DNA of 33,873 nucleotides from Nitrososphaerota archaeon (lineage in GTDB: Archaea > Thermoproteota > Nitrososphaeria_A > Caldarchaeales > JAVZCJ01): contig JAWAZL010000020.1 of assembly GCA_038817485.1 (NCBI GenBank), forward strand, positions 1 through 33,873, in the 5' to 3' direction. The position numbers were made by a program, and so were the translations under genes. Of this stretch, positions 27,941-33,873 are shown in pieces. Under the pieces are notes generated by a model. That model searched no databases. It was not told the origin of the DNA and was given only the letters and a program-made list of their open reading frames with translations. Position 1 is the first letter of the stretch. Each line of letters begins with the position of its first letter.

Positions 27941-30900
27941 TTATGCTTCAACACACTCACTCCATCCACAATTCATACAAGTTACACATGATTCATGATA
28001 AACCAAGCTTTGACTTTGACACATAGGACAAGCTTCTCTTCTTGCTCCTTTCTTTATTTCTTTTGGTAGAAGATTAAACTTTGGTATGTCCATTTTAAGG
28101 AATGGAAGAGAATTTATTTTTTCTTCTTTTTCTTCAATAGTTACTTTAATTCCATATTTATTAAGCATATCAATTGTTTTATTTTCAACAATTTTTAAAT
28201 ATTTTCCTCTTCTTTGAGTAGGAGTTGTTAAAACTTGTTTTGTTTTAGAACCATCTCTATAAATTGTTATTCCTTTTAATCCCAATTTATAAGCAAAAAG
28301 ATAAGCATTCTTAACATCTTCTACACTTACCCAATTTGCCATATTTATTGTTTTACTTATTCCAGCATCCACCCATAGTCCTATTTCATATTGAGCTCTT
28401 ATATGGTCCCACCATGGAATATCATATGCAGTAACAAAAACTTTCTTTAAATCTTCAGGTATCCCATCTATTTCTTGTATTGATCCTCCATTTTCAGCGA
28501 TTTTCTCGATTATTTTTTCATTATATAATCCTCTTTCTCTTAATTGTATTTCAAGTTCTTGATTTACATAATAGAATTTTCCAAGAGTAACTGTTTTTTC
28601 AAATATTAAAGCAAATTGAGGTTCTAAACCAGAGGATGTATCAACAATCATAGATATAGTACCTGTTGGAGCAATGGATGTTAAATTTGAATTTCTAACA
28701 CCATACTTCTTTATATCTTCAATTATTCTATTCCAATCAAAATTCCAAACATCTTTATGATAAAACCCTTCTATTGGCATTTCTCCATCTATATAACCGC
28801 TTTTTTCAAATAATGGAAATGGTCCTCTTTCTTTTGCTCTTTCTATTGATCTAATGTATGCATGATAATCAATAAATTCCATTATTTTCCTCATAAATTC
28901 GAATCCCTCCTCGCTATTATATGGAATTTTTAATGCAAATAATGTATCAGCTAAGCCCATTATTCCTAAACCTATTTTTCTAGATTCCTTAGTTTTTTCT
29001 TCTATTTTCTTAAGAGGGTATTTATTAACATCTATTACATTATCCAAAAAATCAATAGCAATTTTTATTGTTTTTTCTAATTCTTTCCAATCAAATTCTA
29101 CATTTCCTTCAATATCTCTTTTTATAAAAGCATATAAATTAATAGATCCTAAATTACAAGATTCATATGGATATAAAGGTTGTTCACCACAGTCGAGCGA
29201 TATTATTCCATTTGAAATAAAGCTAAAAGTTTTTGGCTCAGTTAAATCGTATACGATCTTTTTCCCATTCGGTTTAATTAATAAAACTTTATCTTCAAAT
29301 ATAGTTTCATGAAAATCTTTTATTTTTAATTTCTTAATTTTATTATTATGTTTGTTTAATAAGAAACCTATTTTATCAATGAAATTTTTAATACCATCTC
29401 TACTTATATGTAATTCATAACATTTTCCATCTTCTTTATAATATTGAATTTTACCATTTTTACTTTTATAAGGAAATATTTTTCTAGGTTTTCTACTTCT
29501 ATTATATATTTTGGATTTTATTCCAAGATTTAGCAATAATATTTGAACATCTTTTAAAAGTTTCTTCGATTTTGAAGTTAATCTTATATAATAACCATTA
29601 TCTTCATTGTATCCGATTGTACCATCTGCAGTAAACAATCCTTGTAAAAATCCAATAACAGCTTCTTTAGGAGCAGTAAAAATGCTTTCAGGAACGACTT
29701 TTTCTTTAGCATCTACATTTTTCACGCCTAATTTCTTAAAGAAATTAACAAAATATTTTGAGTGATAAGATAAATAATAAACACCATTCTTTCTTTTTAC
29801 TTCTTTTATATCAAAATTATACCAATTATTAATTATTGGTTTAAAGTATTCTAAAATTTTCTTATCTTCTTTTGAGAATGTAAATCCCACTCTACAATTT
29901 TCCCCTTCTCTTAACCAACCATCTCCTATTAGCCATCCTAAAACTTGTCCTAATTCTTTACTCCATTTTGTTGGTAAATTTAGTTTATAGATTCTACCAT
30001 TTTTTCCTTTAAACTTATTTTTTACTTTAAATGGTAATTGATAATTATTATTAAATTTTCCTTCACCAGATTGAATTAAAACTTTATGTTTTTTTGGATT
30101 TAATTCTGTTACCTTTATCCATCCTTCATTTGTTAATACTTTATGATCTCCTGTACAAACTAATTCGTAACCAGATTCTGTTATTAATTTATATGTTTCT
30201 TTAATACCAGTACAAAATGCTTTTGATATTTCATTAAAGCTAACACCTTCTTGTGAAGAATTTAGTAAAAGTAATGTTCCATTTGAATTCATAATTTGAA
30301 TTGGCACTCTATTATCAGTTGCGATTTTAATTCCTCCATTAGGATATTTCTTTACCAAATCTTTCATTCTCATTAATCCATTCTCAGTAGAGATTAAAGT
30401 ATCTCCTACTACACAAGGATTAGTTGCTGTTATTTCTCCTTTAGCTTTCTTTAAAATATTTCTTTTATTTATATTATCTAAAAATAATACTCCTGGATCA
30501 GCTGTTTTCCATGCAGATAAAGCAATTATTTCTAATAAATGTTTAGGGTCTATTTTTTTAACACTTTTTCCATTCCTTGGGTTAACTAAAAAATATGGTT
30601 CATCTTTTTCATATGCATCCCAAAAATCTTTATCTAATGCGACAGAAATATTGAAGTTTTCTAATACTCCCTCTGTTGTTTTTAATGTTATGAATTTTTC
30701 TATTTCTGGATGTGATGCATTTAATATTCCCATGTTTGCTCCTCGTCTTTTTCCACCTTGTTTTATAACGTCAGTTGTTACATCTATTATTCTCATAAAG
30801 CTACATGGTCCAGAAGCAGTACCACTTGTAGAAGCAACAACATCTCCTTCAGGTCTTAATTTTGAATAATTTATTCCAACTCCTCCACCAGTTTTGAAAA

Positions 30901-31786
30901 TTATAGATGCTTCCTTAACAGTTTCCATTATAGATTCTATATTATCATCTATGTCTAAAACAAAACATGCAGAAAGCTGACCCAATCTTGCACCTGCATT
31001 GAATAATGTTGGTGAATTTGGCATAAACTTTTTCTCAACCATAATTCTATAATATTCCATGAATTTTTCATAATAATTATCAAATTCTCCATTTTCAAGC
31101 ATTTCTAAAAATTTCTTCCAACTTACTTTCATTTTTCTTTGAGAATTTAATTCATCATAAAGATTTTTCATTCTTTCTAAATGCCATCTATTCCATTTAA
31201 TTTCTTTTAATCCAATTTTAAATTCATAATCTTCTGGATTAAAATCTTCTTTTTCATGTATTTTTTGTAAACCATTTTTATCAAAAATTCTTGAATCATA
31301 TAGTATGTCTGGAATAACAATTAATGCTGCAACTCTTTGAAACAATTGTTTAGGAGACTCTATTATTTTTCCTTCTTCATCTCTAAGAAGATATCTTGAA
31401 GCTAATATTCTTAATGCATTAATTGAAAAATTTTTATCGACTTCATCAACTTCAGTTTTTTGAAGAATTTTCTTTTTCTCTTCTCTTATTCTTTCTCTTT
31501 CTTTTCTATATAGAACATAAGCTTTAGCAGTTTCAAATAATCCGTATTTCATTAAAGAAAATTCAACTATATCTTGTATTTCTTCTACATGAGGATATCT
31601 CTCTTTATATTTTTCATTAATAATTAAAAGAATATATGAAATAACTTTTTCAAGTATTTCTTTATTATATGAATTTGTTGCTAGCATTGCTTTTCTAATA
31701 GCATTCTCTATTCTTGTAGCATCAAAATCTACTATTCTTCCATCTCTTTTAATAACTTTCTCAACTTTAACTTCTACCCTGCTCAA
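27941..31786 (-). CDS. nrdJ: Adenosylcobalamin-dependent (class II) ribonucleotide reductase, intein-containing precursor
   Basis: Makes deoxyribonucleotides by a B12-initiated thiyl radical. The 1281-residue precursor is an 873-residue enzyme plus a 408-residue intein at 458-865. Seen: an N-terminal ATP-cone (VIKRDGRIVDFDATRIENAI at 11-30), the redox-active Cys in LSACFVLDIDD (C274), NP at 456-457, then after the intein C866, E868 and C877 (CGEQP... ESCNLGSINL), forming the NxCxE site. A C-terminal zinc ribbon carries CPMC, ESC, CMNC and SEC. The start is a TTG at 31786 backed by GAGGAGTG upstream; no ATG fits. The 284-nt spacer to the tRNA holds its promoter. The neighbouring cobO supplies the cofactor. 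Confidence 0.95.
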   Translation of the reverse strand: MSRVEVKVEKVIKRDGRIVDFDATRIENAIRKAMLATNSYNKEILEKVISYILLIINEKYKERYPHVEEIQDIVEFSLMKYGLFETAKAYVLYRKERERIREEKKKILQKTEVDEVDKNFSINALRILASRYLLRDEEGKIIESPKQLFQRVAALIVIPDILYDSRIFDKNGLQKIHEKEDFNPEDYEFKIGLKEIKWNRWHLERMKNLYDELNSQRKMKVSWKKFLEMLENGEFDNYYEKFMEYYRIMVEKKFMPNSPTLFNAGARLGQLSACFVLDIDDNIESIMETVKEASIIFKTGGGVGINYSKLRPEGDVVASTSGTASGPCSFMRIIDVTTDVIKQGGKRRGANMGILNASHPEIEKFITLKTTEGVLENFNISVALDKDFWDAYEKDEPYFLVNPRNGKSVKKIDPKHLLEIIALSAWKTADPGVLFLDNINKRNILKKAKGEITATNPCVVGDTLISTENGLMRMKDLVKKYPNGGIKIATDNRVPIQIMNSNGTLLLLNSSQEGVSFNEISKAFCTGIKETYKLITESGYELVCTGDHKVLTNEGWIKVTELNPKKHKVLIQSGEGKFNNNYQLPFKVKNKFKGKNGRIYKLNLPTKWSKELGQVLGWLIGDGWLREGENCRVGFTFSKEDKKILEYFKPIINNWYNFDIKEVKRKNGVYYLSYHSKYFVNFFKKLGVKNVDAKEKVVPESIFTAPKEAVIGFLQGLFTADGTIGYNEDNGYYIRLTSKSKKLLKDVQILLLNLGIKSKIYNRSRKPRKIFPYKSKNGKIQYYKEDGKCYELHISRDGIKNFIDKIGFLLNKHNNKIKKLKIKDFHETIFEDKVLLIKPNGKKIVYDLTEPKTFSFISNGIISLDCGEQPLYPYESCNLGSINLYAFIKRDIEGNVEFDWKELEKTIKIAIDFLDNVIDVNKYPLKKIEEKTKESRKIGLGIMGLADTLFALKIPYNSEEGFEFMRKIMEFIDYHAYIRSIERAKERGPFPLFEKSGYIDGEMPIEGFYHKDVWNFDWNRIIEDIKKYGVRNSNLTSIAPTGTISMIVDTSSGLEPQFALIFEKTVTLGKFYYVNQELEIQLRERGLYNEKIIEKIAENGGSIQEIDGIPEDLKKVFVTAYDIPWWDHIRAQYEIGLWVDAGISKTINMANWVSVEDVKNAYLFAYKLGLKGITIYRDGSKTKQVLTTPTQRRGKYLKIVENKTIDMLNKYGIKVTIEEKEEKINSLPFLKMDIPKFNLLPKEIKKGARREACPMCQSQSLVYHESCVTCMNCGWSECVEA
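29192..30415 (-). mobile_element. Intein with LAGLIDADG homing endonuclease inside nrdJ
   Basis: 408 residues (458-865 of the precursor) in frame. Block A starts at C458 (CVVGDTLISTENG), block B has TGDH at 545-548, and two LAGLIDADG motifs are present with acidic residues intact: VLGWLIGDGW at 615-624 and FLQGLFTADG at 713-722. The C-terminal blocks F and G read YDLTEPKTFSFISNG then IISLD, joined to C866. The usual form is His-Asn before the +1 Cys, and a His in block F; here they are Leu-Asp and Phe. The N-terminal nucleophile and the +1 Cys are both present, so splicing is possible but by atypical residues. Confidence 0.92.
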
Positions 31787-32030
31787 TTCTTTACACTCCT
31801 CAAGAACGATTATAATGAAATCTTTAACAATATAAAACTATTTCCCTTAAATCATTTTTTAATTATTTTTTCTTTTTCTCGTTAATTCTTAAAAATCATT
31901 AAAAAGTTTTTTCTTTCTTATTTTTCTAAAAATATGATATTATACGTATAAAAAAGGGAAAAACATTTCTAATTTTTTAAGAATTAAGGAAAACAAAAAT
32001 AAATTAAAAAAGGTTAAAGCAATAAAAATA

Positions 32031-32040
32031 TTTATATAAA
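32031..32040 (+). promoter_or_regulatory. TATA box of tRNA-Thr
   Basis: TTTATATAAA lies 34-43 nt before the first base of the tRNA, as expected for an archaeal tRNA promoter with a short leader. Confidence 0.55.
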
Positions 32041-32073
32041 AATAAATATTTCTTTTTAAATTAAAAATGTCAT

Positions 32074-32158
32074 GCCCCGATAGCTCAGCTGGTCGGAGCA
32101 TCGGCCTTGTACAATTTAAGATAGCCGAGGGTCCCGGGTTCAAATCCCGGTCGGGGCT
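32074..32158 (+). tRNA. tRNA-Thr (anticodon UGU) with an 11-nt intron
   Basis: The acceptor stem pairs GCCCCGA with TCGGGGC (32151-32157); the D-stem is GCTC/GAGC, the anticodon stem TCGGC/GCCGA, and the T-arm CCGGG-TTCAAAT-CCCGG. The anticodon loop is CT-TGT-A, then an 11-nt insert at 32111-32121, then A, giving anticodon UGU. The intron lies at the usual place after base 37. The bases CUUG and UAAG form the 4-bp central helix, with 3-nt bulges UAC and AUA, cut as UA^C and AU^A by the splicing endonuclease. The discriminator is U, as common in archaeal tRNA-Thr. CCA is not encoded. Confidence 0.93.
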
Positions 32159-32182
32159 TATATAATAATCTGTTTTCTAAAA

Positions 32183-32544
32183 ATGTTACAATTTTCTATA
32201 AATACAATAATGAGAGAAAGTAGAAAATATAATTTAGCATGTATATTATCTTCTCAATTAATTTATGATTTTTATTCTTCTATTATTGGAAATACAGAAT
32301 GAAATTATTTATGATAAATGATAGTGAAAAGATATTGATGCAATTATAAATATTACAGGATGTGAAATATTAAGACAAGTTTTACCTTCATTAAAAACAA
32401 TTTGAAGTTGTTACAATAAGAAAACAAGAAATTGAAGAATTAATGAAAACTACAGGAGGAAAATTATATCCTACGATTGCTTTATTGATTGCCTCATTAA
32501 AACCATATTTTAAAGAATATGAAAATAGAAAGAAAAGAAATTAA
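32183..32544 (+). pseudogene. Remnant of a DUF87/HerA-like P-loop ATPase
   Basis: An initial open stretch from an ATG at 32183 encodes TIMRESRKYNLACILSSQ then IYDFYSSIIGNTE, matching the conserved region of HerA/DUF87 ATPases (RE-x-RKYG... ILASQ ... NTG). A stop at 32300 follows. A second frame continues KLFMINDSEKILMQL, a third NITGCEILRQVLPSLKT, and the last reads VVTIRKQEIEELMKTTGGKL to a stop at 32542-32544. At least three frameshifts break it, and the Walker motifs are missing. It lies directly after tRNA-Thr and its end overlaps the HepT stop by 3 nt. The family call is by motif likeness only. Confidence 0.65.
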
Positions 32545-32873
32545 CTTTCTAAATCTCTTAAAATTTTCTCAAACATCGGCTTAATTTCTGGAATTCTTTT
32601 TTTTACTGTTGCCCAAATATACTTTAAATTTACGCCAAAATATTCATGAATAACTTTATTTCTCATTCCTGCCATCCCTTCCCAAGGAATTTCTGGATAT
32701 CTTGTTCTTATTTCTTCAGGGATTTTCTTAATAGCTTTACCTATGATTTCGAGAGCATTAAGGATTATATTATTAACATTATTGATTCTATGAATAAAGC
32801 TATAAAATTCATAGAAGGAATGTCTTATGAGCAATTTATTCAAGATGATAAAACAGTTTTTGCAGTTGTGAAT
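32541..32873 (-). pseudogene. HepT-type (DUF86/HEPN) toxin gene split by an internal inversion
   Basis: The C-terminal two-thirds (minus strand, 32541-32756) is ALEIIGKAIKKIPEEIRTRY, continuing to RNKVIHEYFGVN and ending KILRDLES. This is the full HEPN active site (R-x4-H) of DUF86. The N-terminal part is missing on this strand but stands on the plus strand at 32757-32873. Read in order it begins IKDYIINIIDSMNKAIKF, continues through GMSYEQFIQDDKTVFAVVN and joins directly to ALEIIGKAI. The current minus-strand ORF (32541-32843) therefore starts inside antisense sequence and is not a valid protein. HepT is an RNase of the MNT-HepT toxin-antitoxin pair; the antitoxin remnant lies immediately upstream. 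Confidence 0.88.
32757..32873 (+). other. 117-bp in-frame inverted segment of the HepT gene
   Basis: Exactly 39 codons of HepT sequence are flipped relative to the rest. The restored minus-strand junctions are AGAGAA|ATT on the upstream side and AAT|GCTCTC on the downstream side: the segment ends in ATT/AAT and the flanks carry GAGA and TCTC, a short imperfect inverted repeat. Reverting it gives VKRE-IKDYIINIID... VVN-ALEIIG, the normal HepT start and fold, in one frame. Confidence 0.85.
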
Positions 32874-32881
32874 TTCTCTTT

Positions 32882-33090
32882 TTACAAATAAATCACTTCT
32901 TGTAAAATGTGCCTTCCTATTGCTGGCTTTAAAGTAGTTTTATCCATAAGATCAACCTTTATTCCTAAAATTTCTGATAAATAATTTTCAATTTCTATAA
33001 ATTTTATAAGATCAATTTTGCAAATTCTTTAAATTCTATAAGAATGTCAAGATCACTTGATTCTCTACACTTGATTTTTATATCTTTTCT
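32882..33090 (-). pseudogene. Remnant of an MNT (minimal nucleotidyltransferase) antitoxin
   Basis: On the minus strand, RESSDLDILIEFKEFAKL (about 33013-33066) carries the two catalytic aspartates of MNT. After a frameshift near 33010-33018, DLIKFIEIENYLSEILGIKV follows, then the MNT C-terminus IGRHILQEVIYL with a stop at 32882-32884. The GSxxRGE nucleotide-binding part that should precede RESSD is replaced by unrelated KDIKIKC. The order MNT then HepT, with almost abutting ends, is the standard operon. The antitoxin is dead, so the toxin, also broken, is probably tolerated for that reason. Confidence 0.82.
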
Positions 33091-33563
33091 TATAAAAAAT
33101 ACTCATTAGTAATTTATATAATTTATCTTTAAAAAAATTTAAGCAAACTTTTTTTTTAGCAGTTTTATAATATATAATTATTATAACTCATTTACAATTT
33201 TTCTTTATTTTTAAAAGAGGATTAATATTAAGAAATTTAGAAATTTTAAAAAGAATTTAAAAAATTATTAAATATTGGAAAATTAGGTATCTTTTAAAAC
33301 AATTAAAGAAGTGATTGAAACATAAAATTTAATCTTTAATCCAAATAATAATTTATCCAATTGAAATTTTATTTTATTCTCAATATAAAGTTCGTAAAAA
33401 ATTTCTTTCAATAGCATTTTCGTCTTTTATAAAATTAAAAATGCTTAATAATCATTATTAAATATTAAAAGGAAAGAAAATGAAGAATATAAAAATTTAT
33501 TTAGAATTAGAAAAAGATTTAAAAATACATTCTTAAGTATATTATAAAATGAGGTGATTAAAA
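33091..33563. other. 473-nt AT-rich non-coding region
   Basis: No open frame of note; stops are dense in all six frames. It probably holds the upstream end of the decayed toxin-antitoxin pair and the promoter of the glycosidase gene. The strongest element is GAGGTGAT at 33551-33558, a full Shine-Dalgarno for the next gene. Confidence 0.55.
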
Positions 33564-33873
33564 ATCAAGATAGCTATTATAGGTGCTGGAAGTCTTGCTT
33601 GGAGTTCTACAATTATTCATGATTTATGTATGACACCTGAATTATATGGTAGTACTATTTCATTAATGGATATTAATGAAGAACGTTTAAATACTATTTA
33701 TGATTTTGCTAGAAGATATGCGTTTGAACGTAAAGCTAATTTAAAATTTGAGAAAACTTTAGATAGAAAAGAAGCAATAAAAGATGCTGATTTTGTAATA
33801 AATATGGCAATGGCTGGAGGCCATCAATATTATGAAAAAATGAGAGAAATATCTGAAAAATATGGTTATTATA
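33564..33873 (+). CDS. Glycoside hydrolase family 4 (alpha-glucosidase/galactosidase-like), 5' part, ATC start position
   Basis: The first 103 residues of a GH4 NAD- and metal-dependent glycosidase, running off the window. Seen: the N-terminal Rossmann motif KIAIIGAGSLAWSSTIIHDL, then ISLMDINEERL, and DADFVINMAMAGGHQYY. The codon where the family has its initiator Met is ATC (33564-33566), placed 5 nt after a perfect GGTGAT ribosome site; there is no in-frame ATG, GTG or TTG upstream before a stop, and the first internal ATG is at residue 22, inside the Rossmann domain. Either a rare AUC start is used, or a mutation or sequencing error destroyed the ATG. Confidence 0.85.
   Translation, partial: MKIAIIGAGSLAWSSTIIHDLCMTPELYGSTISLMDINEERLNTIYDFARRYAFERKANLKFEKTLDRKEAIKDADFVINMAMAGGHQYYEKMREISEKYGYY

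What the first reader, a model, noticed from the sequence alone, without database searches (positions are those of the whole stretch)
32541..32873. HepT toxin gene with a 117-bp exactly in-frame internal inversion
The HEPN active-site part is on the minus strand, the first 39 codons after the start are on the plus strand, and flipping 32757-32873 restores a continuous, normal DUF86 protein (VKRE-IKDYI ... VVN-ALEIIG). The ends carry short inverted repeats (ATT/AAT plus GAGA/TCTC). Such a micro-inversion could be a phase switch that turns a toxin on and off, a fold-back replication error, or an assembly chimera. I favour an error-driven loss because the antitoxin is also decayed.
Basis: partly seen in the sequence, partly recalled or inferred. 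Interest (0 to 1): 0.85.

Follow-up and report, generated by a model that had tools for sequence, protein, structure and literature searches.

The report
Dead toxin gene with flipped segment
In this archaeal genome a toxin-antitoxin gene pair has decayed, and one of the breaks is a 115-base piece of the toxin gene copied backwards in place; a sister species still has the intact pair in the normal orientation, so this is a mutation scar and almost certainly not an on/off switch.

Summary
Minus-strand hepT (32541-32885) carries residues ~5-43 on the plus strand, and flipping them raises the Pfam HepT-like score from 72 to 96.5 bits. A genome of the same genus (G001) is collinear with the window and holds an intact mntA-hepT pair with this segment in the normal orientation at 98% identity. 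Among 61 HepT-bearing loci scanned, only the window's own shows both strands. Comparison with G001 corrects the details. The inverted copy is 32757-32871 (115 nt). The ATT/AAT repeat is absent from G001, so it is a scar: AT was copied twice, TC was lost, and invariant Arg43 became Asn. The GAGA/TCTC pair is chance level (P=0.52). "Exactly in-frame" is automatic for any length-conserving inversion. The flipped protein is not normal: its GTG start is now GTA, and invariant Asp11 and Glu50 have changed. The antitoxin has lost its start, about 42 codons and its GS motif, and has a frameshift. No serine or tyrosine recombinase was detected in the genome. Best reading: a one-way, replication-type micro-inversion in a dying HepT/MntA operon. 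A phase switch is strongly disfavoured; a library or assembly artefact is unlikely but cannot be excluded without reads.

The parts
32541..32885 (-). hepT pseudogene frame (115 codons with stop), open but without a start codon: codon 1 is GTA where relatives have GTG
32541..32756 (-). C-terminal part of hepT in normal orientation, carrying the intact RX4HXY motif (RNKVIHEY); E50K and K69E are derived in this lineage
32757..32871 (+). inverted copy of hepT codons ~5-43 (helix 1 and the first half of helix 2); 113/115 identical to G001 on the opposite strand
32757..32758 (.). scar: AT (inverted duplicate of the AT at 32872-32873) stands where the congener has TC; changes invariant Arg43 to Asn if flipped
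32872..32885 (-). 5' end of hepT in normal orientation (codons 1-4 and part of 5), with start codon GTG->GTA at 32883-32885
32882..33067 (-). mntA antitoxin remnant (NTP_transf_2): keeps the C-terminal part and the DLD of GSX10DXD; lacks the start, about 42 codons and the GS
33060..33067 (.). single ATTCTCTA left at the junction of the ~125-bp mntA deletion (two copies flank the missing DNA in G001)
33015..33018 (-). 1-nt frameshift in mntA (TTTT versus TTTTT in G001)

Best explanation
The locus is a decayed chromosomal HepT/MntA (type VII) toxin-antitoxin operon in an uncultured thermoproteote-like archaeon. In this lineage hepT suffered a one-way local micro-inversion in which about 115 nt coding helix 1 and half of helix 2 were copied from the opposite strand. 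The likeliest route is a double template switch or break-repair event during replication, with little or no microhomology, which duplicated AT at one edge and dropped TC at the other. hepT also lost its start codon, and mntA lost its start and active-site GS by a deletion between 8-bp direct repeats. Shown: orientation difference from the congener, scar, start loss, antitoxin lesions, homology. Inferred: the replication mechanism, that the product is inactive, and that toxin inactivation preceded or accompanied antitoxin loss (an unneutralised toxin should be harmful).
For: G001 is collinear over the whole contig and has intact mntA-hepT, with the segment on the opposite strand at 98%. L026 (SJ3.Bin56, 84% identical HepT) is uninverted, with GTG start and AGG for Arg43. 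The scar is non-conservative. Breakpoint repeats are chance level. D11, R43 and E50 are invariant in 20 homologues but changed here; lineage-specific changes are 3 nonsynonymous against 0-1 synonymous. mntA has a deletion plus a frameshift. Decay of HepT is seen elsewhere too (L073 truncated; G015, G034, G044 with stops). One micro-inversion was found in ~183 kb aligned between the two genomes.
Against: No reads were available, so a chimeric library molecule cannot be excluded, and the site is ~1 kb from the contig end. Template switching usually uses longer flanking inverted repeats (PMC8755829, PMC8604942), and here there are none above chance. The RX4HXY motif and an open frame survive.
Confidence: 0.85

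Rival explanations
1. Assembly or library artefact: the inversion exists only in the assembled contig, made by a chimeric read or amplification fold-back.
For: Single MAG-like assembly of 38 contigs with the site ~1 kb from a contig end; no reads to check. No second contig in the bin carries either orientation.
Against: There is no inverted repeat long enough for an assembler to flip the segment (longest 4 nt at the breakpoints; none of the listed repeats of 14 nt or more in 31750-33600 brackets the segment), so the junctions must have been in the reads. Independent decay of the same operon (lost start, antitoxin deletion and frameshift) makes a real lesion expected. The other long genes of the window are intact.
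Confidence: 0.1
2. Reversible phase switch: a recombinase flips the segment and turns the toxin on and off.
For: Intragenic inversions exist in prokaryotes; the frame stays open in both orientations.
Against: The relative lacks inverted repeats at the breakpoints; the 2-nt exchange is not reversible by a conservative flip. The start codon is lost and invariant residues are changed even after flipping. No PF00239 or PF00589 match in the 98%-complete genome, while controls ring. The antitoxin is dead.
Confidence: 0.02
3. The inverted frame is a new functional protein: a HEPN fragment with a replaced N-terminal helix, kept by selection.
For: The 114-codon frame has no stop, a TTG-initiated 100-aa ORF exists, and RX4HXY is intact.
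Against: No GTG/ATG start at the usual place; substitutions at invariant positions in the unchanged part (E50K); open antisense frames of this length occur in about 10% of local codon stretches; weaker structural prediction, pLDDT 82 versus 91 for an intact relative.
Confidence: 0.03

Closest known systems
HepT/MntA (HEPN/MNT, type VII) toxin-antitoxin, Shewanella SO_3166/SO_3165 (PMC7641770)
   Same: Congener pair: HepT has RX4HXY (RNKVIHEY), MntA has GSX10DXD (GSYVKGKNRESSDLD), antitoxin upstream with GTGA overlap; the modelled relative best matches 5YEP/6M6U/7BXO/7AE2-9.
   Different: In the window both genes are broken; sequence identity to the solved HepTs is low (~18%).
Micro-inversions by template switching or MMBIR (human-chimpanzee, PMC8755829; yeast IR spacer inversion, PMC8604942)
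   Same: Short local inversion with length conserved, and sequence homogenised at the edge.
   Different: Longer (115 nt versus 17-33 nt), with no flanking inverted repeats above chance, and in an archaeon.
Intragenic invertons / phase-variable invertible DNA
   Same: An in-gene inverted segment.
   Different: No recombinase, no recombination-site repeats, non-reversible scar, no start codon.

Membership tests
HepT/MntA toxin-antitoxin | HepT-like domain PF01934 | tested here: met
   72.5 bits present, 96.5 flipped, 104.2 congener; cut-off 23.5
HepT/MntA toxin-antitoxin | RX4HXY motif in the toxin | tested here: met
   RNKVIHEY at residues 75-82, present in the window and in all 20 homologues
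HepT/MntA toxin-antitoxin | Adjacent MntA with GSX10DXD | tested here: not met
   Met in G001, not met in the window: GS deleted, frame broken. The window holds a pseudogene pair, not a working member
HepT/MntA toxin-antitoxin | HEPN fold like solved HepT | tested here: inconclusive
   Intact relative L026 model: top PDB hits are HepT/HEPN toxins, TM 0.7 with prob 1.00, but E about 0.02; the broken protein itself was not tested in this way
HepT/MntA toxin-antitoxin | RNase toxicity neutralised by AMPylation | not testable with these tools
   needs biochemistry
Phase-variable inverton | Inverted repeats at both ends, in both orientations | tested here: not met
   ATT/AAT absent in the un-inverted relative; longest arm 4 nt, P=0.52
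Phase-variable inverton | Cognate recombinase in the genome | tested here: not met
   No PF00239 or PF00589 match
Phase-variable inverton | Both orientations in one population | not testable with these tools
   reads not available
Template-switch micro-inversion | Local length-conserving inversion relative to a relative | tested here: met
Template-switch micro-inversion | Flanking inverted repeats at the boundaries | tested here: not met
   chance-level 4 nt; mechanism therefore inferred only

The most novel reading that the evidence does not exclude
The inverted hepT frame is still expressed from the internal TTG as an N-terminally rewired HEPN protein with a new, antitoxin-independent role, born by a single micro-inversion.
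Probability: 0.03. Interest if true: 0.7.

Novelty: new member of a known kind. Interest (0 to 1): 0.27.

Why it matters
It is a well-resolved natural example of a >100-nt micro-inversion in an archaeon, readable because the sister species keeps the ancestral state. It shows one route by which a toxin gene dies together with its antitoxin. It also warns that short repeats seen at an inversion's ends can be scars of the event and not its cause, and that being in frame is not evidence of a switch.

Tried and rejected
Phase switch: rejected on scar, start loss and absence of recombinases. GAGA/TCTC as recombination site: flipping between these repeats would not produce the observed junctions, and their match is chance level. 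Serine-recombinase-like 2-nt staggered exchange: would formally fit the 2-nt TC->AT conversion, but no such enzyme or half-sites exist. Other micro-inversions: ~183 kb of aligned blocks gave two further short opposite-strand matches, both ordinary hairpins that align collinearly. A viral-contig scan for HepT relatives found none. Sequence searches of the PDB with one sequence and with a profile gave no hit at E<=0.001; fold search did better.

Full report
What is there. The window is the whole of contig C20 of a 1.44-Mb, 98%-complete archaeal genome, G000. On the minus strand a frame runs from 32885 to the stop at 32541. Its C-terminal 71 codons are a HepT-like HEPN domain, and the plus strand of 32757-32873 codes the missing N-terminal part. 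Flipping that piece gives a 114-residue HepT; the Pfam score rises from 72.5 to 96.5 bits. The intact gene of the sister genome scores 104.2.

Comparison with relatives. G001, the only other genome of the family searched, is collinear with the window along the whole contig (C2:375.2-413.4 kb, 90-97% identity in the main blocks). It has an intact MntA-like antitoxin (GSYVKGKNRESSDLD, the GSX10DXD motif of PMC7641770) whose TGA stop overlaps the GTG start of an intact HepT. The segment matches window 32757-32871 on the opposite strand, 113 of 115 bases identical. A HepT from 'Thaumarchaeota' SJ3.Bin56 (L026, 84% identical) and the other homologues are uninverted: among 61 HepT-bearing loci scanned, only those that are the window itself show both strands. 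The inversion is therefore derived and occurred in the window's lineage.

The breakpoints. On the plus strand G001 reads GAGAGC-TC-TCACAAC...CCTTA-ATTTCTC; the window reads GAGAGC-AT-TAAGG...GTTGTGA-ATTTCTC. A core of 113 nt is inverted; at one edge TC is gone and AT, an inverted duplicate of the AT still present at the other edge, stands instead. Longest inverted match between the 15-nt flanks in the uninverted relative is 4 nt, reached by 52% of random pairs. Length conservation makes flipped-back frame restoration automatic, so it is no evidence of design.

Other lesions. The start codon GTG is GTA in the window, with no other start upstream in frame. D11, R43 and E50, invariant in 20 homologues, are N, N (by the scar) and K. 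Polarised with L026, the window lineage has 3 nonsynonymous and 0-1 synonymous changes beyond the scar, too few for a test but in line with no constraint. mntA has lost ~125 bp, including its start and the GS motif, between two ATTCTCTA repeats, and has a 1-nt frameshift. NTP_transf_2 (14.8 bits) and the MntA model (15.7 bits) now match only below their cut-offs. An AlphaFold2 model of the L026 HepT (pLDDT 91) has helix 1 at 5-23 and helices at 28-33 and 35-53; the inversion (residues 5-43) removes helix 1 and half of helix 2. That model's best solved matches are HepT and HEPN toxins.

Switch, artefact or mutation. A switch needs repeats, a recombinase and a working gene in one orientation: none was found. 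An artefact cannot be excluded without reads. However, an assembler needs a repeat to flip a segment and there is none, and the operon is independently dead. A replication-type event is the best remaining cause: template switching and microhomology-mediated repair are the published mechanisms (PMC8755829, PMC8604942). The known cases are mostly flanked by inverted repeats, so the exact mechanism here is inferred. In ~183 kb of aligned blocks this was the only micro-inversion, so it is rare, as expected.

Order of events. A working HepT without MntA should be harmful, so toxin damage probably came first or together with antitoxin loss. This is inference; the sequence does not date the lesions.

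Verdict. Real, well resolved and ordinary in kind: a mutational micro-inversion in a decaying toxin-antitoxin operon.

Noticed in passing
window 27941-31786 (-), insert about 29192-30408: Ribonucleotide reductase gene with a LAGLIDADG intein that is absent from the collinear gene of the sister genome G001: recent gain or loss.
   Followed up: partly
window 32074-32158 (+): tRNA-Thr(TGT)-like gene with a short intron after the anticodon, read by eye; ARAGORN did not call it.
   Followed up: no
window 32183-32544 (+): Frameshifted remnant of a ~110-aa family (RKYNLACILSSQLIY..., no Pfam match) with several copies in G000 (C2, C9, C22, C30) and G001 (C3, C6, C13, C16); possibly tail of a mobile-element protein next to the tRNA.
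   Followed up: partly
window ~33213-33500: AT-rich noncoding stretch with 72-80% identical copies at several places in G000 and G001: a dispersed repeat family.
   Followed up: no
L073 2943-3102; L026 2680-3003: Other HepT/MntA loci are decaying too: L073 hepT is truncated near the same residue (LEII) with a short internal duplication; L026 mntA has a 1-nt frameshift.
   Followed up: partly
G000 whole genome: No tyrosine recombinase (PF00589) or resolvase (PF00239) match at all, although 14 and 10 of 14 control genomes have them; absence of any XerA-like protein would be unusual.
   Followed up: no
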